Shown here in pieces: positions 20,907-29,099 of a stretch of 64,000 nucleotides of DNA. The stretch is from Niveispirillum cyanobacteriorum (GTDB lineage: Bacteria; Pseudomonadota; Alphaproteobacteria; Azospirillales; Azospirillaceae). A program made the position numbers and the translations under genes. Each line of letters begins with the position of its first letter. The first letter of the stretch is position 1. The stretch spans positions 2,040,501 to 2,104,500 of the forward strand of contig NZ_CP025611.1 in the NCBI RefSeq assembly GCF_002868735.1, written 5' to 3'. The notes under the pieces are model-generated. The model made no database searches. It saw only the letters and a list, made by a program, of their open reading frames with translations, and was not told the DNA's origin.

Positions 20907-21536
20907 TTACGCCAGTTCCTCCACCCCATCGCGCGACAGGCGGAAAACCCGGTCCTGCGGCACAGGCAGGCGGCAGGCAGTGTCCTGATCCTGACCGGCA
21001 TAATGGGCGCGCAGGATGCGGCCGCTCATCCCATGCGAAATTGCTATGGTGGGGCGGTCGACCTCGGTGACGAAGCCCAGCAGCCGCTCACGCACGCCCT
21101 CATACCGTTCCCCATTGGGGGCGTGGAACTGCCAGCCATGGGGGCCATGATCGGCCAGCCAGGGGTTGGCCGACTCAATCTCTGCCCGTGTCATGCCTTC
21201 CCAGTCACCGAATGACACTTCGGCAAGGCGCGCGTCCAGCGTGACGGGCAGGTCCAGATGGCGGTTTATGATGCGCGTCGTCTCCTGTGTACGGCCCAAC
21301 GGGCTGGACACCAGCCGCACCGTATCGCGCCAGTGGGGGATATCCGCCATCAACCGCTTCAGGATGGCACCAACCTGATCGGCCTGGGCGCGGCCCCGTT
21401 CCGTCAGGTCGCTGTCCATCTGCCCCTGGCAGCGGGCGGCGACATTCCAATGCGTCTGCCCATGCCGGACCAGCAGGATCGGATGTCCAGCGATAACCCT
21501 TTGTTCAAGCATCATGTCCATGGGGTTTACGGCCAC
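20907..21536 (-). CDS. Histidine phosphatase superfamily (phosphoglycerate mutase-like) protein
   Basis: A protein of about 209 residues with the phosphohistidine motif [11 protein letters not shown] near residues 21-31. The other conserved active-site elements are the arginine in [13 protein letters not shown], the glutamate in FGDWEGM and the second histidine in ISHGMSGRI. It is probably a broad-specificity phosphatase (GpmB/CobC-like) rather than a glycolytic mutase. A GTG start at 21536 overlaps the end of hemF, so the two are likely coupled; ATGs 5-8 codons later are alternatives. Substrate unknown. Confidence 0.88.
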
Positions 21537-22426
21537 TTCACTTCCGGCGGCATGGACATCAGAATGGCCTCGATATTGCCGCCGGTTTTCAGCCCGAACA
21601 GCGTGCCGCGGTCATGCAGCAGGTTGAATTCGACATAGCGGCCCCGGCGGATCAACTGATGATCACGCTGTGCTTCGTTCCATTCTTGGTGCATGCGCCG
21701 CGCCACGATGCGGGGATAGACTTCCAGGAAGGCCTTGCCCACGGCGCGGGTGAAGGCAAAGTCATCCGCCCAATCGCCGGTATCGAGCTGATCATAGAAG
21801 ATGCCGCCTACACCGCGCGGCTCGTTCCGGTGCGGCAGGAAGAAGTAGCGGTCGCACCATTCCTTATACTTGGCATAGTAATCATCGCCATGCGCATCGC
21901 ACGCCCCCTTCAGGGCGGCGTGGAAATCGGCCTTGTCCTCTTCGGTCTGAACACCCTCCAGGAACATGGGCGTCAGGTCGGCACCGCCGCCGAACCAGTT
22001 CTGGCTGGTTACCAGCATACGCGTATTCATATGCACCGCCGGCACCAGCGGGCTTTGCATATGAGCCACCAGAGAGATCCCGCTTGCCCAGAAACGCCCG
22101 TCGCCGCCGGCACCAGGGATGGAGGCGCGAAACTCAGGCGAGAAGGTGCCGTGGACAGTGGAGACGTTCACCCCCACCTTCTCAAACACGCGGCCCTTCA
22201 TCACGCTCATCACGCCGCCGCCACCTTCGCCGCCATCATGGTTGGGACGGTCCCATTCCTTGCGCTCGAATCGCCCGGCGGGCAGGCCGGCATGCGGGCC
22301 GCTGGCCAGTTCATCCTCCAGCCGTTCGAACGCGGCACAGATCTGGTCACGCAGGCTTTCAAACCAGGCTTTCGCCTGGGCTTGACGGTCGGCCAGGATG
22401 TCGGGCGGCGGCAGCGGTGTCGGCAT
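21527..22426 (-). CDS. hemF: Oxygen-dependent coproporphyrinogen III oxidase
   Basis: A 299-residue enzyme that oxidatively decarboxylates coproporphyrinogen III to protoporphyrinogen IX in aerobic haem synthesis. Family motifs are present: [53 protein letters not shown] and the C-terminal [24 protein letters not shown]. The sequence is complete, with a standard N-terminus. It overlaps the downstream phosphatase gene by 10 bases. TrmL and a small protein lie upstream on the same strand. Confidence 0.97.
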
Positions 22427-22464
22427 GGGCGGGTCCGGGGGACAGAGGCACGGGTCTTAACGGT

Positions 22465-22950
22465 TTAACCCTTCCCGTCCCCGCTGGAAATGATTGTTTG
22501 ACGCTCCGGAGTGTCAACCTGCCTTAACACTTCACCCAATACCATGGAAGCCGCGATGGCGACGTTGAGCGAACGTGTGCCCGGCCGCATGGGGATCAGC
22601 ACACGCAGGTCGGCAGCATCATGCACATCATCGGGCACGCCCGCACTTTCCCGGCCCAGCAGCAGGATATCGTCCGGCTGATACGTCACCTGGGTGTACG
22701 GCACGGCGGCCCGCGTGGTCAGCAGGACCAGACGTCCGCGCCGCTGGGCCTGAAACGCGGCCCAACTGACATGGCGGGTGACGTCGGCATGGTCGGCATA
22801 ATCCATGACAGAGCGCCTCATGCGCTTGTCATCCAGGATGAAGCCGCAGGGTTCGATAATGTCCAGCCCGACGCCGGTACAGGCGCCCAGACGCATCAGG
22901 GTGCCGGCATTCTGCGGAATGTCGGGCTGGTAAAGGGCAAGGCGTGGCAA
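22465..22950 (-). CDS. trmL: tRNA (cytidine(34)-2'-O)-methyltransferase
   Basis: A 161-residue SPOUT methyltransferase that methylates the wobble ribose of certain leucine tRNAs. It opens with LALYQPDIPQNAGTLMRLGACTG, carries the LLLGRESAGVPDDVHD motif for SAM binding, and ends with IPMRPGTRSLNVAIAASMVLGE, the knot-forming motif. Length and motifs match TrmL (YibK). It follows a small reverse-strand gene by 14 bases and precedes hemF. Confidence 0.95.
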   Translation of the reverse strand: MPRLALYQPDIPQNAGTLMRLGACTGVGLDIIEPCGFILDDKRMRRSVMDYADHADVTRHVSWAAFQAQRRGRLVLLTTRAAVPYTQVTYQPDDILLLGRESAGVPDDVHDAADLRVLIPMRPGTRSLNVAIAASMVLGEVLRQVDTPERQTIISSGDGKG

Positions 22951-22959
22951 GATGGTGGC

Positions 22960-23202
22960 TTAGGTCAGCACGTCCAGATACATGCCCCGGCGATACCGGG
23001 CCGGCAGGCGCAGCATGCCATCCACGATCAACGCCGCCAGTTCCTTGGCATTGGGCCAGCGGTTGCCGGGCCGTCCCATGGGAATGGGCCGCCCGCCGGG
23101 GCCGGAGATGGGCAGGACGCCACGCCGCCCGCCACCCTCAACAACGCTGCCACCCAGGCCCGTGGGGCCGGCGGAAGAGGGGTTCATGCGTGTATCGACC
23201 AT
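22960..23202 (-). CDS. Small conserved-looking protein of unknown function
   Basis: An 80-residue protein that I do not recognise. The N-terminal half is rich in glycine and proline. The C-terminal half is an ordered-looking helical segment (NAKELAALIVDGMLRLPARYRRGMYLDVL). It lies 9 bases upstream of trmL on the same strand, which suggests one transcript, and codon use resembles its neighbours. There is no signal peptide or metal motif. It may instead be a chance frame in GC-rich DNA, although the ordered C-terminus argues for a real gene. Confidence 0.5.
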   Translation of the reverse strand: MVDTRMNPSSAGPTGLGGSVVEGGGRRGVLPISGPGGRPIPMGRPGNRWPNAKELAALIVDGMLRLPARYRRGMYLDVLT

Positions 23203-23321
23203 GGGATGGCGTCCAGGCTGGAAAAGACCGCACTCATCCTATAAGGAAAGGGCACGGCGCGAAAGGGGGCACCGCCGCTGCCGCATGGCGGAAATGCTAC
23301 TCTCCGCCCCCGCCCTTGGGC

Positions 23322-23350
23322 TTGACTCTGCTCCCCCCCTCGTTTATCAA
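23322..23350 (+). promoter_or_regulatory. rpmB promoter
   Basis: TTGACT (23322-23327) and TATCAA (23345-23350) are separated by the ideal 17 bases. The predicted leader to the rpmB start is about 100 bases. Confidence 0.6.
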
Positions 23351-23457
23351 CGCGGCTTCGTTGGTTGGGGGAGACCCTGACCGGCAAGGTCTTTTTCGTC
23401 TTAGGTGCGCCCCGGTTCTGGTTCCGTGGCCGCCAGCAGCAAGAGAATAGGTGTTCC

Positions 23458-23754
23458 ATGTCCCGCAAGTGCGCCGTGACCGGCAAGGGTGTGCAGACCG
23501 GCAATAACGTCTCCCACGCCAACAACAAGTCCCGCCGGCGCTTCCTGCCGAACCTGCAGGAAACCTCGCTGATGTCCGACGCGTTGGGCCGCATGGTCCG
23601 CCTGCGCCTGTCGACCAACGGCATCCGCACCATCGAACACAAGGGTGGCCTGGACGCCGCTCTGCTGGATATCGCTGACGCCAAGCTGGACGTGGATGCC
23701 CGCAAGGTGAAGAAGCAGATCCAGAAGGTCCTGGCCGCCAAGACCGCCGCCTGA
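23458..23754 (+). CDS. rpmB: 50S ribosomal protein L28
   Basis: A 98-residue ribosomal protein of the large subunit. It opens with [20 protein letters not shown], the usual L28 start, followed by [13 protein letters not shown] and a basic middle region. Residues 60-98 form the extended C-terminus usual in alphaproteobacteria. Only one cysteine of a possible zinc pair is present (Cys5), so this is a zinc-independent form. The ATG at 23458 is unambiguous. A good promoter lies upstream and a hairpin terminator downstream. Confidence 0.97.
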
Positions 23755-23795
23755 TCGGCGTCTGTCGGTTCCAGTATCGCTGCTGACGGTATCGT

Positions 23796-23836
23796 CGGCC
23801 CCGCGAGACACCCGTTCGGGTCGTTTCGCGGGGCCG
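23796..23836 (+). terminator. Probable terminator after rpmB
   Basis: A perfect 11-bp stem (CGGCCCCGCGA at 23796-23806 with 23826-23836) has a loop that itself holds ACCCG/CGGGT. The T-run after it is weak, so termination may be partial and yhhQ may be partly read from the rpmB promoter. Confidence 0.6.
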
Positions 23837-23888
23837 CTGCCGTTTGTGGTTCTGTGCTTTCTTCCGCCCGCCTTTCGGGACCGTCTCC

Positions 23889-24671
23889 ATGTCGCTGTCA
23901 CCCGCCGATCTGATCGCCTTTCTGAACGCCGTGCCGCCAGAGGCGCTGCTGCTGTGCCAGGCCCTGTTCTGCTTCGGCACGATCCTGGTGATGGTGCGGC
24001 TGTTCGGGGCACCGGGACTTTATCTCTACATCGCCACCGCCGTGATCGCGGCGAATGTGGAGGTGTTGAAGGCGGTGCAGTTCGGTTTCTATGACCATCC
24101 GGTGGCCATGGGCACCGTCCTGTTCGGCTCCACCTATCTGGCCACCGACATCCTGACCGAACATTACGGGCGCGATGCGGCGCGCAAGGCCGTGTTTCTG
24201 TCCTTTGCGGCCTATCTTCTGTTCACCCTGTTCATGGTCATCACCTTGGGCTACCGCCCCATGACGGCAGAACAGGCGGGTGCCGACATGGCATGGGCCC
24301 TGCCCATGCAGGACCATATCGCCGCCATCTTCACCCCCGCCCCCGCCCTGTTCGCGGCGGGCATGACGGCCTATCTGACCAGCCAACTGTTCGACGTTTG
24401 GGTTTATCAGCGCATCCGCGGTGCCACCGGCGATCGCCATCTCTGGCTGCGCAACAATGGCAGCACCATGCTGTCATCCCTGGTCGATAACGTGATCTTC
24501 TCCGTCCTGGCCTGGGTCGTCTTCGCGCCCGATCCAGTCGGTTGGGAGGCGCTGCTCTACACCTATATCCTGGGCACCTATGGCATGCGGGTGGCGCTGT
24601 CGATCCTGGACACGCCCTTCATGTACCTGTCGCGGCGCATGGTGCGGCGGGTGGATGGGGTGGTGGTGTGA
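23889..24671 (+). CDS. yhhQ: Queuosine precursor transporter, YhhQ/VUT family
   Basis: A 260-residue inner-membrane protein with about six hydrophobic segments. Family signatures are FGSTYLATDILTEHYGRDAARKAVF in the middle and YLTSQLFDVWVYQRIRGATG followed by LWLRNNGSTMLSSLVDNVIF in the second half. The best-studied member, E. coli YhhQ, imports the queuosine precursors preQ0 and preQ1; a chlamydial homologue is linked to queuine uptake. The gene for tRNA-guanine transglycosylase, which would use the imported base, is 1 kb downstream on the same strand, separated only by a small frame and a toxin-antitoxin pair. The start at 23889 was chosen because the upstream frame is not family-like. Confidence 0.9.
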   Translation: MSLSPADLIAFLNAVPPEALLLCQALFCFGTILVMVRLFGAPGLYLYIATAVIAANVEVLKAVQFGFYDHPVAMGTVLFGSTYLATDILTEHYGRDAARKAVFLSFAAYLLFTLFMVITLGYRPMTAEQAGADMAWALPMQDHIAAIFTPAPALFAAGMTAYLTSQLFDVWVYQRIRGATGDRHLWLRNNGSTMLSSLVDNVIFSVLAWVVFAPDPVGWEALLYTYILGTYGMRVALSILDTPFMYLSRRMVRRVDGVVV

Positions 24672-24706
24672 TTGAGCAGCCTGCCGATTGCGGTTAACAT
24701 CACCCA

Positions 24707-24877
24707 ATGGACACGATCCTTTCCGCCACGCCGGAGCCGGTGACCGCCGAACAGCTCCGCGCCGCCTGCAAGGCGGTGGGCGGAACGGCCAAGGTGTCAA
24801 CGGACATTGTGAAACGGACCCTTCGGGCGCTTGAACAGGCAGGTGCCATGTTTATTGCGGGCGGGGTGCAGCGTTAG
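24707..24877 (+). CDS. Small protein of 56 residues, possible winged-helix remnant
   Basis: A short frame, ATG at 24707 to TAG at 24877, not reported by length-limited gene callers. Codon use looks like real coding sequence for this genome. The protein has two amphipathic helices (TAEQLRAACKAVGG and STDIVKRTLRALEQAG) and ends in MFIAGGVQR, which reads like the recognition helix and wing of a winged-helix protein. No function can be assigned. It lies 35 bases after yhhQ and about 210 bases before the antitoxin gene, so it could belong to either unit or be a remnant. Confidence 0.4.
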   Translation: MDTILSATPEPVTAEQLRAACKAVGGTAKVSTDIVKRTLRALEQAGAMFIAGGVQR

Positions 24878-25003
24878 GCGATCAAGGTTATCGGCCTTTT
24901 CGGCAATCAGAACACCGTTTGCCGGCCAATCACGCCAAAATGGCGAACAACAGTGGAATATCTGAAATCCCGATTTACCGTGGCGGACGACTAGCCACCT
25001 ACA

Positions 25004-25030
25004 GGGAAGTTGCGAGAACAACCACTTCCC
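25004..25030. promoter_or_regulatory. Inverted repeat upstream of the toxin-antitoxin operon
   Basis: GGGAAGT (25004-25010) and ACTTCCC (25024-25030) form an inverted repeat about 58 bases upstream of the antitoxin start. Toxin-antitoxin operons are usually repressed by their own products at such repeats. The role is inferred. Confidence 0.4.
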
Positions 25031-25087
25031 AAGAGGGGCAAAAGCCGCCATTTTCTTCTGGACGGCTTGCAGCGAAGGACAAGACCC

Positions 25088-25297
25088 ATGTCCCTGATCG
25101 ACATGAAGCAGCTTTCCGCCCAGCAAAAGCTCGACCTGATCGCCGAGCTGTGTGACAGCCTGGACGCAGCGGACGTTCCGCTTTCGCCGGCTTGGAAGGC
25201 AGAGTTGGAGCGACGGAACGCCGATTTTGAAGAGATGCGCGGTCAGGCGGAACCGTGGGAGCAGGTGCTAACCGCACTCCAGGCCGACCGCCACTGA
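25088..25297 (+). CDS. Antitoxin, addiction module component family
   Basis: A 69-residue acidic helical protein of the 'putative addiction module component' type that pairs with RelE/ParE toxins. Typical features are an N-terminal stretch (IDMKQLSAQQKLDLIAELCDSL), LSPAWKAELERRNADFEE, and a C-terminus with EPWEQVLTAL that would wrap the toxin. Its stop overlaps the toxin start (TGATG), the usual coupled arrangement. An inverted repeat upstream may be its operator. Unlike DNA-binding antitoxins it has no clear ribbon-helix-helix, so autoregulation is uncertain. Confidence 0.82.
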   Translation: MSLIDMKQLSAQQKLDLIAELCDSLDAADVPLSPAWKAELERRNADFEEMRGQAEPWEQVLTALQADRH

Positions 25298-25584
25298 TGG
25301 TACGCGTCCTGGTACTGCCACAGGCGCGGGCAGAAATGGATGCGGCCCGACGCTGGTATGATCAGCAGGTGGAGGGGCTGGGAACGCTTTTCCTCACGGA
25401 AGTCGATAAACTGATCCTCCGTCTTGCTGAAAATCCCCGGGCGTTCCCGCTTAGTCATGCGGGATTGCGGCGCGCGCTGCTTCGGCGCTTCCCCTACGCC
25501 CTTTTCTTTCGGATCGAACCGGACGCCGTCTATATTCTGGCCTGTGCCCATAACCACCGCGACCCGGCTACGTGGCCGCGCTGA
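25297..25584 (+). CDS. RelE/ParE family toxin
   Basis: A 95-residue protein of the RelE/ParE superfamily. It begins with MVRVLVLPQARAEMDAARRWYDQQ and continues with the helix LFLTEVDKLILRLAENPRAFP. The C-terminal sheet (GLRRALLRRFPYALFFRIEPDAVYILACAHNHRDP) has the basic residues and late histidines seen in toxins of this group. RelE members cleave mRNA at the ribosome and ParE members poison gyrase; the sequence alone does not decide. It is translationally coupled to the antitoxin just upstream. The module interrupts an otherwise collinear yhhQ-tgt stretch, consistent with insertion. Confidence 0.85.
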   Translation: MVRVLVLPQARAEMDAARRWYDQQVEGLGTLFLTEVDKLILRLAENPRAFPLSHAGLRRALLRRFPYALFFRIEPDAVYILACAHNHRDPATWPR

Positions 25585-25696
25585 TGGCCCTCGCCCCTTC
25601 CTGCCTGCTATTCGCGGGCAGCCCCTGTACAAGTGCGGTTGACTCCCCCATACCCAGGGGCTTGATCTTCAGCGATACCCTACGGTTATTCACACC

Positions 25697-26914
25697 ATGG
25701 CCATCTCCTACCCCGGTTTTTCCTTCGACATCACGCACCGTGACCCGGCGGGCAGCAAGGCGCGCATTGGCACGCTGTCCACGCCGCATGGTGCCATCCA
25801 GACGCCGAATTTCATTTTCTGCGGTACCAAGGCGGCCATCAAGGGGCTGACGACGGAGCAGATGCGCGACGAGAAGACCGACATCATCCTGGCCAATACC
25901 TATCATCTGATGATCCAGCCGGGCGCCGATCTGGTGGCCAAGCTGGGTGGGCTTCATAAGATGATGAACTGGCATGGGCCGATGCTGACCGACAGTGGCG
26001 GGTATCAGATTTTTGCCATGGGCCATGGGTCGGTGGCGGATGAGGTGAAGGGGCGGCGGACCACGACGCGCGAGAAGACCCTGTTGAAGATCACCGAGGA
26101 GGGGGCGACCTTCCGCTCCTATACCAACGGGGAAAAGCTGTTCCTGACGCCGGAAAAGTCGATTGATATTCAGCGCAAGCTGGGCCCCGATTTCGTGGTG
26201 CAGCTGGATGAATGCACGCCCTTCCATGTGGACCGGAAATATACCGCCCGGTCGATGAAGATGTCCCACCGCTGGGGCGACCGGTCGCTGACCGCGTTCA
26301 AGGAATTTGGCGGCATCTCGGCCAACGGCCTGCCCCAGGCCATGTATGGCATTGTCCAGGGCGGGGTCTATCCGGACCTGCGCAAGGAGAGTGCGGAGAT
26401 CGTCGCGAACCAGGATTTCTTTGCCACCGCCGTCGGCGGCTGTCTGGGGGCCACGCGCGAACAGATGCATGATGTGGTGGGCATGGCCATGGCGCATGTT
26501 CACCCCACCCGGCCTGTCCATCTTCTGGGCATTGGCGGCATTGTCGATATTTTTGAGGGCGTGGCGCTCGGCATCGACACGTTCGACTGTGTCAGTCCGA
26601 CGCGAATCGCCCGCCATGGCTGGGCCCTGGCACCGGGCGTGAAGGGCGAGCGGTTGAACATGCGCAATGCGCGGTTCAAGGATGATGACACCCCCATCGA
26701 TGCCGAATGCGGCTGTTACGCCTGCCGCACGGCCAGCCGTGGCTATATCCACCACCTGCTGAAGGCGGAGGAGATGCTGGGCATGCAGCTGCTGACCATG
26801 CACAATGTCCACACCATGAACCGACTGATGCGTGATATCCGTGCGGCCATCATCACCGGCACCCTGGCCGAGGCGCGGCGCAAATGGGTGTGGCAGGCGG
26901 GGGACAGTGAATGA
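25697..26914 (+). CDS. tgt: tRNA-guanine transglycosylase (divergent, chlamydial-like)
   Basis: A 405-residue enzyme that swaps guanine 34 of GUN-anticodon tRNAs for a queuosine precursor or queuine. Asp99 in DSGGYQ and the nucleophile Asp297 in GIDTFDC are present, as is the zinc site Cys338, Cys340, Cys343 and His369. The base-recognition loop is unusual: residues 247-253 read GGCLGAT, one residue shorter than the E. coli-type GGLAVGE. Several segments (SYTNGEKLFLTPE, FHVDRKYTARSM, RPVHLLGIG, PTRIARHG) recall the queuine-using Chlamydia enzyme as I remember it. No queA, queG or queC-F gene is nearby, but a YhhQ transporter is. The stop overlaps the next gene by 4 bases (ATGA). Confidence 0.95.
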   Translation: MAISYPGFSFDITHRDPAGSKARIGTLSTPHGAIQTPNFIFCGTKAAIKGLTTEQMRDEKTDIILANTYHLMIQPGADLVAKLGGLHKMMNWHGPMLTDSGGYQIFAMGHGSVADEVKGRRTTTREKTLLKITEEGATFRSYTNGEKLFLTPEKSIDIQRKLGPDFVVQLDECTPFHVDRKYTARSMKMSHRWGDRSLTAFKEFGGISANGLPQAMYGIVQGGVYPDLRKESAEIVANQDFFATAVGGCLGATREQMHDVVGMAMAHVHPTRPVHLLGIGGIVDIFEGVALGIDTFDCVSPTRIARHGWALAPGVKGERLNMRNARFKDDDTPIDAECGCYACRTASRGYIHHLLKAEEMLGMQLLTMHNVHTMNRLMRDIRAAIITGTLAEARRKWVWQAGDSE

Positions 26915-27807
26915 CCCCGCCTGCCAGCGGCAGCAGCGCATCCGCCATCGTCGCCGGCCTGTCCGGCGTGGTGGATGAACATCTGCGCTGGCTGACGCAA
27001 TGGCACAAGGCGGCCCTGTTCACCCGCGACAGCGGCCTGACGGGACCGGACGCAGCACCGGAGCCCAAGGGCTTCGCCGCCTGGGTGGCGCGGGTGAAGC
27101 GCGGCAGCGTGGCCCATCAACCGGCCTTTGACCGGCTGGTGCAACTGCATGATCAGTTACACCGCATGGGCCGCCTGACCCTGATGCGCGCGGCAGAGGG
27201 GGATGCGCCCGATTACGCCACCTATAAGGCTGTGCTGGAGAAGTTTGATGAGTTCATTCAGCAATGCCGGCGCATCGAACGCGCCCTCTCTGTCGCTGGC
27301 AGCGGCATCGACCCGCTAACGGGCCTGCGCAACCGCACCGGTCTGGCCGATGAGGTATCACGCGAGTTGGCACGCTTTGCCCGCACCGGGCAGCCCTTCT
27401 GCGTGGCGCTGTGCGATCTGGACAAGTTTAAATCGGTCAACGACACCTACGGGCATGAGGCGGGCGACCGCGTGCTGGTGGCTGCTGCCGGCTGCCTGAC
27501 GCGTGGTATCCGGGCGATTGACGAGGCCTTCCGCATGGGGGGCGAGGAAATCCTGATCCTGCTGAAGGAAACCCATCTGGCCGAGGCACTGCTGGTGCTG
27601 GAACGACTGCGCGCCGATCTGGCTGACACGCCGGTACAGCTGGCCGATGGGCAGGTACTGCACGTCACGGCCAGCTTTGGTGCCGCAGAGGTGACGGGGG
27701 AGATCAGCGTCGACGCCCTGGTCGACCGGGCCGATCAGGCGCTGTATGCCGCCAAACATGGTGGGCGCAACCGGGTGGAGGCGTGGCGCGAACCGGCCAC
27801 GCCCTGA
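26911..27807 (+). CDS. Diguanylate cyclase with degenerate CZB-like sensor domain (DgcZ-like)
   Basis: A 298-residue GGDEF protein. The catalytic motif is GGEEI at residues 210-214 (Ile in place of the usual Phe), and an inhibitory-site RAID (201-204) sits exactly five residues before it, so an active, product-inhibited cyclase making c-di-GMP is likely. The N-terminal 115 residues resemble the zinc-binding CZB domain of DgcZ: His24 and the pair His80/His84 are present, but the conserved cysteine is missing (GFAAW around residues 54-58). Its metal response may therefore differ. It overlaps the tgt stop by 4 bases, so the two are co-translated, an unusual pairing. Confidence 0.9.
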   Translation: MTPPASGSSASAIVAGLSGVVDEHLRWLTQWHKAALFTRDSGLTGPDAAPEPKGFAAWVARVKRGSVAHQPAFDRLVQLHDQLHRMGRLTLMRAAEGDAPDYATYKAVLEKFDEFIQQCRRIERALSVAGSGIDPLTGLRNRTGLADEVSRELARFARTGQPFCVALCDLDKFKSVNDTYGHEAGDRVLVAAAGCLTRGIRAIDEAFRMGGEEILILLKETHLAEALLVLERLRADLADTPVQLADGQVLHVTASFGAAEVTGEISVDALVDRADQALYAAKHGGRNRVEAWREPATP

Positions 27808-27814
27808 GGCCCTT

Positions 27815-27960
27815 ATACCAGTTCCCGGTGACCGCAACCGATCACCGGGCCTCAGTCGCCGGCGCCCACATCCGTGGGCTTGGCTACGCGCCACGTGGCG
27901 CGCGGCGGCAGTCGCCGCCGAACCAGATCCCGGTGAGTTCAAATCACCGGGATCTGGTAT
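27815..27960. repeat. Compound palindromic (BIME-like) element
   Basis: A 146-base block made almost wholly of inverted repeats. Outer arms of 17 bases (27815-27831 and 27944-27960) match with one mismatch. Within it lie CCCGGTGA/TCACCGGG (27824-27831/27842-27849), GCCCAC/GTGGGC (27864-27869/27874-27879), the palindrome GCGCCACGTGGCGC (27888-27901) and CGGCGGC/GCCGCCG (27903-27909/27914-27920). A perfect 15-bp hairpin follows (27922-27936/27944-27958). It separates two convergent genes and may act as their terminator, or be a REP/MITE-type repeat. Confidence 0.65.
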
Positions 27961-28538
27961 TACTGCAACACGATCACCGGGAACATGTTCGCGCGGATGG
28001 ACTTGTCCAGTTCCACATCCAGGTCGCCGGCAAGATCGCGGACCAGATCGGTCATGGTCTTTTCCCGCTGCGCCAGGGTCACATCCTCGGCCACGGTCGT
28101 GGAGCGGGCGACGGCACCAGACACGCTGCCGGTGAAGCCGCGCGAGGTGCCCTCGACCACGATATCGACCTGCAATTTGCCTTCATATTTCTGCGACTGG
28201 TCCTTGGTGAACCAACCCTTGATGCCCTTAGTTCGCTCCAGATCAATCTCCTTGACCGAGGCGTCCTTGATGATGACGCGGGCCTTGCCCTGCGGCCCAC
28301 CGGCCTTCAGACGGGTGGAGGCCCAGAGGCGAACCGCATCCGACGGGGTCAGCGGCAATTGATGGTCGATATTGGGCGGGGCCATGGGGGCCGCATAGGC
28401 GCTTTCCACCTCAATGCTGGCCACATCCAGCACGATCGGCTCCCGCCCCGAGAAATCCACGATGGATTGGGCGGCAACAGGCATGGCGGACAGCAGCGGG
28501 GCGGCCAGGGCGAGCGTCAGCAGCGAACGGCGCAGCAT
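27960..28538 (-). CDS. Exported protein of unknown function
   Basis: A 192-residue protein with a clean signal peptide (MLRRSLLTLALAAPLLSAMPVAAQ). The mature part has a predicted mixed alpha/beta domain: a strand pair RVIIKDASVKEIDL, then GWFTKDQSQKYEGKLQVDIVVEGT, and a C-terminal helix (AQREKTMTDLVRDLAGDLDVELDKSI). It has no cysteines or recognised catalytic motif. Similar proteins occur in Rhodospirillales without assigned role; I cannot name the family. Its stop lies at the edge of the palindromic element. Confidence 0.82.
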   Translation of the reverse strand: MLRRSLLTLALAAPLLSAMPVAAQSIVDFSGREPIVLDVASIEVESAYAAPMAPPNIDHQLPLTPSDAVRLWASTRLKAGGPQGKARVIIKDASVKEIDLERTKGIKGWFTKDQSQKYEGKLQVDIVVEGTSRGFTGSVSGAVARSTTVAEDVTLAQREKTMTDLVRDLAGDLDVELDKSIRANMFPVIVLQ

Positions 28539-28670
28539 GGTGGGGTCCTGTTTTTGGTTTCAGACGGCGCGAAAAGACAGCATGCCTGTGCGCCATGGCG
28601 GTTTCATGGCGCGCATCCTGCCTTTGTGTTGGGCAGCGGGCAAGTGTGCAGCGCCGAAGGTGGGGGCGGA

Positions 28671-29099
28671 TCAGGCCAGCGCGTCGATGGCGCTGCGTTC
28701 CAGCTCATCCTGGGCGCGGATGGTGGCCAAATTAGCCTGGAAGGCGCGGAGCGAGGAAATCTGGTCAACCCGTTCCGTTACTGGATCGACATTGGGAGCA
28801 GCCACCAGCCCCTGCTCGTTCGCATCCGTGCTGTCGGGTTGATATTCGGGGATATAGGCCGGTGTCGTGGGCCGGGCCACCACGCGCGTCCCCTGCCCCT
28901 GGCCATTGGGACCTGTCACCGCCGTCTGGCTGAGGTTTTGCGGCTGAAAGGCCTCGGTCTGGCCGGGTTGCACCGTACCGTCCGCCGCCGGGATGGCCCC
29001 CGTGCTGCGCTGGTTGGCGACGTTGTTGGCGCTGTTGGCGAGACGCTGCGTCTGGGCCAGCGCGCCGGACAGGGCCGTACCGATGCTGCTGATGGACAT
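28671..29099 (-). CDS. FlgC-like flagellar rod family protein, orphan
   Basis: A 142-residue protein built like a flagellar axial protein. The N-terminus (MSISSIGTALSGALAQTQRLANSANNVANQ) matches the rod/hook family helix with its NxANxxT-like element. The C-terminus (SLRAFQANLATIRAQDELERSAIDAL) is the matching coiled-coil helix. The middle region is short and rich in Gln, Thr and Pro. FlgC is the closest named relative, but no other flagellar gene is in the window and the protein lacks much of the FlgC core. It may be a paralogue or assembly accessory rather than the true proximal rod protein. Confidence 0.72.
   Translation of the reverse strand: MSISSIGTALSGALAQTQRLANSANNVANQRSTGAIPAADGTVQPGQTEAFQPQNLSQTAVTGPNGQGQGTRVVARPTTPAYIPEYQPDSTDANEQGLVAAPNVDPVTERVDQISSLRAFQANLATIRAQDELERSAIDALA

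What the first reader, a model, noticed from the sequence alone, without database searches (positions are those of the whole stretch)
23889..26914. YhhQ transporter plus a chlamydial-like Tgt: possible queuine salvage
Seen: Tgt has the catalytic aspartates and zinc site, but its base-recognition loop (residues 247-253, GGCLGAT) is one residue shorter than the E. coli-type GGLAVGE, and several segments (LFLTPE, FHVD, HLLGIG, PTRIARHG) recall the Chlamydia trachomatis enzyme. Known: that enzyme uses queuine, the loop helps select preQ1 or queuine, and YhhQ proteins import queuosine precursors. No queA, queG or queC-F gene is near. Inference: this bacterium may insert imported queuine rather than make preQ1. 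My comparison with Chlamydia is from memory.
Basis: partly seen in the sequence, partly recalled or inferred. Interest (0 to 1): 0.7.

Follow-up and report, generated by a model that had tools for sequence, protein, structure and literature searches.

The report
Queuine-salvage gene pair in large-genome bacterium
This large-genome bacterium lacks key genes for making the tRNA modification queuosine but keeps a transporter and an enzyme that probably import and insert the ready-made base queuine, a habit so far linked mainly to bacteria living inside host cells.

Summary
Confirmed and strengthened. The window holds a queuosine-precursor transporter (YhhQ/QPTR) and the genome's only Tgt, whose base-binding loop is one residue shorter than the preQ1-type loop. 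Searches of the 6.05-Mb genome found no QueA, QueG, QueC or QueF. In its family of 35 genomes, 16 have QueA and a canonical Tgt; 19 lack QueA, and 18 of those carry the short-loop Tgt and this transporter (the 19th lacks both). In 289 genomes of the class, 53 of 58 with the short-loop Tgt lack QueA, against 7 of 212 with a canonical Tgt. The transporter gene sits directly upstream of tgt in about half of the short-loop loci, often behind rpmB. GluQRS, which acts on finished queuosine, is retained. Best reading: direct queuine salvage, a known route, here in large-genome bacteria. Against a simple rule: five short-loop genomes have QueA (three also QueF), so the loop alone does not prove queuine specificity. 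No chlamydial sequence could be compared, QueD, QueE and QueH were not searched, and nothing was tested biochemically.

The parts
23458..23754 (+). rpmB-like gene (ribosomal protein L28; name recalled from its sequence), upstream partner in the conserved order rpmB-yhhQ-tgt
   Evidence: Translation; similar gene upstream of tgt in 76 of 139 distinct short-loop loci
23889..24671 (+). yhhQ: queuosine-precursor transporter (QPTR, PF02592/TIGR00697), probable queuine importer
   Evidence: TIGR00697 154.6 bits over cut-off 50.95; E. coli YhhQ model NF008406 33.4 bits, cut-off 252; only PF02592 match of the genome
25088..25584 (+). Addiction-module-like pair (TIGR02574 component 25088-25297; RelE-like ORF 25300-25584) lying between yhhQ and tgt; probably a local insertion, not part of the salvage system
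   Evidence: TIGR02574 46.4 bits over cut-off 31.9; the second ORF matched no NCBIfam family and its RelE label is recalled; the yhhQ-tgt gap is only 131 bp in G022 and 176 bp in G007
25697..26914 (+). tgt: short-loop tRNA-guanine(34) transglycosylase, the genome's only Tgt
   Evidence: TIGR00430 406.6 bits over cut-off; single match in the genome; model pLDDT 92.3, Tgt fold
26021..26080 (+). Insertion region of the short-loop Tgt type (about residues 109-128)
   Evidence: Residues 107-128 hold 19 or more letters in 144 of 144 short-loop rows, against 4 in 40 of 41 canonical rows; low pLDDT at 112-119
26435..26455 (+). Base-recognition loop, residues 247-253 GGCLGAT
   Evidence: G[GD][SCT][LF]G in 144 of 144 short-loop rows, GGL[AS][VL]GE in 40 of 41 canonical rows

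Best explanation
The pair is a direct queuine-salvage system. YhhQ imports queuine, and the short-loop Tgt exchanges guanine 34 of the GUN-anticodon tRNAs for queuine, giving queuosine in one step, so that QueC to QueF, QueA and QueG are not needed. Shown here: gene content, loop type, clade, gene order, and the association with loss of QueA. Inferred: that the base is queuine, that YhhQ carries it, and that the tRNAs of this organism hold queuosine.
For: No QueA, QueG, QueC or QueF in the genome. Family f1, 35 genomes: QueA in 16, all 16 with canonical GGLAVGE Tgt; of 19 without QueA, 18 have the short-loop Tgt (17 full-length, G003 split over two contig ends) and 18 have the transporter at over 140 bits; G019 has neither. 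Class, 289 genomes: QueA absent in 53 of 58 short-loop and 7 of 212 canonical genomes, or 45 of 50 without the 8 whose Tgts were in the search profile. Families f1, f15 and f16 hold both states, and the two agree in all of their sampled members. yhhQ lies within 1.2 kb upstream in 75 of 139 distinct short-loop loci, 1 of 41 canonical. Glycine in the loop is what makes room for queuine in human QTRT1 (PMC6165067, passages). The genome keeps GluQRS (348.7 bits, cut-off 250), which acts on queuosine of tRNA-Asp (PMC3542578, passages).
Against: Five of 58 short-loop genomes have QueA, and three of these also QueF, each with one Tgt match, so such enzymes can probably use preQ1. The enzyme keeps the Cys (C173) that eukaryotic queuine enzymes replace by Val; but so do all 144 short-loop rows. 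The loop does not literally fit the published queuine motif GG[LS][AS]G. G019 keeps GluQRS without any Tgt found, so GluQRS is not strict proof. The search profile was built from QueA- genomes and the tests do not correct for kinship.
Confidence: 0.72

Rival explanations
1. Bartonella-like end product: YhhQ imports preQ1 and Tgt inserts it; with QueA gone the tRNA keeps preQ1 and never reaches queuosine.
For: B. henselae has tgt and QPTR only, and traces of preQ1 were found in its tRNA (PMC11570991, abstract and section 19). Short-loop Tgts occur with QueA and QueF in G213, G288 and G297, so the type can probably use preQ1.
Against: Bartonella Tgt keeps the GGLAVG loop (PMC11570991, section 15), the window Tgt does not. 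GluQRS, which needs queuosine, is retained. The five QueA+ short-loop genomes have no yhhQ beside tgt, against 33 of 52 QueA- ones.
Confidence: 0.12
2. Bispecific enzyme: the short-loop Tgt takes either preQ1 or queuine, and which base ends up in tRNA depends on supply.
For: The short-loop clade contains both QueA- genomes (53 of 58) and QueA+ genomes (5 of 58). B. henselae Tgt and QPTR use preQ1 and, at high concentration, queuine (PMC11570991, abstract).
Against: Without QueA only queuine leads to queuosine, and the association with QueA loss is strong; preQ1 use would give a dead-end base.
Confidence: 0.12
3. An unknown enzyme replaces QueA and QueG, so the organism imports preQ1 and still makes queuosine from it.
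For: GluQRS retention only suggests that queuosine is present, not how it arises. QueH was not searched.
Against: QueC and QueF are missing too, so the whole pathway went together; it would need an undescribed enzyme for the QueA step.
Confidence: 0.04

Closest known systems
Direct queuine salvage of Chlamydia trachomatis (Tgt plus QPTR; PMC11570991, introduction passages)
   Same: Tgt and a QPTR transporter; no QueA, QueG, QueC or QueF found
   Different: Large genome (6.05 Mb), presumably free-living; sequence kinship with the chlamydial enzyme untested
tgt-only Anaplasmataceae (Anaplasma, Ehrlichia, Wolbachia)
   Same: Same short-loop Tgt type with GGSLG and the insertion; same side of the tree
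   Different: Obligate intracellular bacteria; no yhhQ within the fetched flanks of those four loci
Bartonella henselae tgt-QPTR salvage
   Same: Alphaproteobacterium with tgt and a QPTR and without the genes after preQ1
   Different: Bartonella keeps the preQ1-type loop GGLAVG and prefers preQ1 (PMC11570991)
Human QTRT1
   Same: Glycine where Z. mobilis Tgt has Val233 (if the gap is placed after the loop)
   Different: QTRT1 has Val161 where the window enzyme keeps Cys; it works with QTRT2 (PMC6165067, passages)

Membership tests
tRNA-guanine(34) transglycosylase Tgt (TIGR00430) | Score over the curated cut-off of the equivalog model | tested here: met
   406.6 bits, cut-off 306.75
tRNA-guanine(34) transglycosylase Tgt (TIGR00430) | Tgt fold with both catalytic aspartates and zinc ligands | tested here: met
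QPTR/YhhQ queuosine-precursor transporter (TIGR00697) | Score over the curated cut-off | tested here: met
   154.6 bits, cut-off 50.95
E. coli-type YhhQ (NF008406, preQ0/preQ1 transporter) | Score over the curated cut-off | tested here: not met
   33.4 bits, cut-off 252
Direct queuine salvage | Tgt and a transporter present, QueA and QueG absent | tested here: met
   QueH not searched
Direct queuine salvage | No own preQ1 synthesis | tested here: met
   QueC and QueF not found beyond weak partial matches; QueD and QueE not searched
Direct queuine salvage | Published queuine motif GG[LS][AS]G in the Tgt loop | tested here: not met
   GGCLG; it fits GGxxG only. A. phagocytophilum Tgt, a tgt-only bacterium, reads GGSLG (L120)
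Direct queuine salvage | Queuine inserted into tRNA by the enzyme | not testable with these tools
   Needs an assay
preQ1-type (canonical) bacterial Tgt | Loop GGL[AS]VGE | tested here: not met
   GGCLGAT in the window; GGL[AS][VL]GE in 40 of 41 canonical rows
Chlamydial Tgt clade | Groups with Chlamydia Tgt in a tree | not tested

The most novel reading that the evidence does not exclude
rpmB-yhhQ-tgt is an old alphaproteobacterial queuine-salvage module, inherited in several families of large-genome, probably free-living bacteria. It is an alternative to queuosine synthesis: lineages keep one or the other. Queuine salvage by bacteria would then not be a product of intracellular life, and queuine would be a shared nutrient in soil and water.
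Probability: 0.5. Interest if true: 0.75.

Novelty: new member of a known kind. Interest (0 to 1): 0.55.

Why it matters
[quoted passage not shown] the same paper says that Anaplasma and Ehrlichia keep only tgt). Here a genus of 4.7-7.5-Mb genomes, and parts of two further families, lack QueA and carry a transporter-Tgt pair. If right, such bacteria depend on queuine from neighbours, and the five short-loop genomes that keep QueA are natural material to find which residues set the choice between preQ1 and queuine.

Tried and rejected
Chance or mis-assembly: rejected, because QueA, QueG, QueC and QueF are missing together in 19 of 35 family genomes (weak or partial matches set aside). In G000 itself the QueC profile gave 21.7 bits over positions 2-61 of 210 (22.7 with neighbours, cut-off 22) and QueF 22.9 bits (cut-off 27.3); I read these as other PP-loop and FolE-type proteins, an inference not checked by a scan.

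'Short loop equals queuine enzyme': rejected as a general rule, because five short-loop genomes have QueA.

preQ1 riboswitch or other Rfam family: none at gathering scores in window 21000-29000. Promoter and terminator scan: 2 promoter-like sites (shuffles 1.1, sd 1.1) and 6 terminator-like sites (3.0, sd 1.8), not informative. Fold comparison confirms the Tgt fold but does not tell the substrate: Z. mobilis Tgt and its queuine-bound mutant 4hqv score alike. The human enzyme is not among the 50 rows shown there. The GluQRS model TIGR03838 gave no match over its cut-off in 80 of 80 genomes; another model, NF004315, did for the two proteins scanned.

Naming the organism: three plasmid searches gave only short matches, about 74-76% identical where Azospirillum was hit, Neorhizobium and others; the genus is left unnamed. 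In print: searches for queuosine + Azospirillum + tgt (2 papers) and queuine + free-living + salvage + queA (5 papers, 3 listed) showed by title and start of abstract no report of this case; the library is only part of the literature, and the 2019 paper on bacterial queuine salvage is not held.
Full report
What is there. On the + strand the window reads an rpmB-like gene (23458-23754), yhhQ (23889-24671), a small addiction-module-like pair (25088-25584), tgt (25697-26914) and a GGDEF diguanylate cyclase gene (26911-27807) that overlaps tgt by four bases. The window lies at G000:C1:2040501-2104500 of a genome of 6,048,780 bases in 5 contigs, completeness 100. The Tgt is the only one of the genome and YhhQ its only PF02592 match. 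Tgt scores 406.6 bits with TIGR00430; the transporter scores 154.6 bits with TIGR00697, but only 33.4 with the E. coli YhhQ model, whose cut-off is 252.

The genome. QueA gives no match and QueG none. QueC gives one 21.7-bit match to positions 2-61 of 210, 22.7 bits with its neighbours, which just passes the Pfam cut-off of 22; real QueC matches in relatives score 190-260. QueF gives 22.9 bits, under its cut-off of 27.3. The QueA search rings in 9 of 14 control genomes. QueD, QueE and QueH were not searched.

The family. Of 35 genomes of family f1 (G000-G034), 16 have QueA, and all 16 have a canonical Tgt with GGLAVGE. QueG is found in the same 16 (in G029 as a contig-end fragment of 130.5 bits, below the cut-off), QueC at over 180 bits in 12 and QueF at over 100 bits in 15 of them; in the 19 others only weak matches occur. 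Of the 19, 18 carry the short-loop Tgt: 17 full-length sequences and G003, whose gene is split over two contig ends. G019 has neither a Tgt nor a PF02592 match. PF02592 is present at over 140 bits in 18 of the 19, and at over 100 bits in 2 of the 16 QueA+ genomes. The own genus g1 (11 genomes, 4.7-7.5 Mb) lacks QueA throughout.

The class. In an even sample of 289 genomes of at least 90% completeness, a profile of 11 short-loop Tgts split the matches with a gap: 58 genomes at 541 bits or more, 212 lower (best 390), 19 with none. QueA is absent from 53 of 58, 7 of 212 and 17 of 19. Fisher p is 2e-42 for the first two, not corrected for kinship. The profile rows all came from QueA- genomes and 8 of the 58 genomes supplied a row; without them it is 45 of 50 (p 2e-37). 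QueF is present in 5 of 58 and 151 of 212. Three families hold both states, and Tgt type and QueA agree in every sampled member of f15 (G048, G165 against G245, G313), f16 (G166, G246, G314 against G049) and f1. Among the 185 Tgts aligned (several from the profile's own genomes), 144 of 144 short-loop rows read G[GD][SCT][LF]G and 40 of 41 canonical rows GGL[AS][VL]GE. On a quick tree without the loop and insertion columns the two types part on one branch (SH-aLRT 98); several long branches and uneven letter make-up were flagged. In the smaller relatives set two QueA- genomes, G055 and G057 (87% and 71% complete), have canonical-type Tgts.

Gene order. A transporter gene of this type lies within 1.2 kb of tgt on the same strand in 75 of 139 distinct short-loop loci and in 1 of 41 canonical loci (a 32.9-bit match); all 76 such neighbours of the short-loop tgts are upstream. 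The search profile was itself built from such neighbours, and many loci have short flanks. In the class sample yhhQ is adjacent in 33 of 52 QueA- and 0 of 5 QueA+ short-loop genomes (p 0.010; G304 not fetched, G130 cut short). rpmB lies upstream in 76 of 139 loci, 55 of them with yhhQ too (the window's own locus is cut there and counted as yhhQ only). The order rpmB-yhhQ-tgt is seen in members of f1, f15 and f16 and in the Inquilinus MAG (where rpmB is the row hyp23365), which speaks for an inherited module. The five QueA+ short-loop genomes have rpmB-tgt without yhhQ.

Independent hint of queuosine. GluQRS attaches glutamate to queuosine of tRNA-Asp (PMC3542578, passages). The genome has a 296-aa GluQRS: NF004315 348.7 bits, cut-off 250. 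A GluQRS-like ORF was seen in all 20 loci fetched for it: 18 of the 19 QueA- family genomes (G005 not fetched), G048 and G166; only those of G000 and G019 were checked by profile. The model used for the genome-wide search, TIGR03838, was over its cut-off in 0 of 80 genomes. G019 keeps GluQRS although no Tgt was found in it, so retention is no strict proof.

Mechanism. The best reading is direct queuine salvage: import by YhhQ and one-step insertion by Tgt. Gene content, clade and order are shown; substrate and transport are inferred. The strongest result against a simple loop rule is that G213, G288 and G297 have QueA, QueF and one short-loop Tgt, and G124 and G139 have QueA and one short-loop Tgt. 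In those lineages the enzyme probably takes preQ1, or both bases. For the window I therefore rest the claim on the missing pathway and the linked transporter more than on the loop.

Literature. PMC11570991 (abstract, sections 15, 18 and 19, and passages read) describes the direct route in Chlamydia trachomatis, a queuine motif GG[LS][AS]G, and a preQ1-type loop in Bartonella. [quoted passage not shown] Of PMC11130926 only the abstract and outline were seen. The window genus lies outside that picture. The loop GGCLG does not fit the published motif letter for letter, but neither does GGSLG of the Anaplasma phagocytophilum locus L120.

Noticed in passing
window 25088-25584: An addiction-module-like pair (TIGR02574 component and a RelE-like ORF) sits between yhhQ and tgt; tblastn also finds both in G001, G002 and G006, while the yhhQ-tgt gap is 131 bp in G022.
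   Followed up: partly
window 26911-27807: A GGDEF diguanylate cyclase gene overlaps the end of tgt (ATGA); the same overlap is seen in G005, G006, G008 and G010, with looser spacing in other loci.
   Followed up: no
G237 (L198) and G306 (L204), family f122: Short-loop Tgt with QueF but without QueA, and no yhhQ beside tgt: preQ1 might be the end product there.
   Followed up: no
G019 (L244): A family member with no Tgt, no PF02592 transporter and no QueA found, yet with an intact GluQRS.
   Followed up: no
L085 (G018:C2:26000-33000) and L083 (G055:C14): Second, divergent Tgt-like genes (276 and 266 bits, under the cut-off); the one in G018 lies beside a PF02592-like gene.
   Followed up: no
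L110: A MAG titled Rickettsia typhi carries a short-loop Tgt with yhhQ beside it; the species label looks doubtful, since Rickettsia are reported to keep the full pathway.
   Followed up: no
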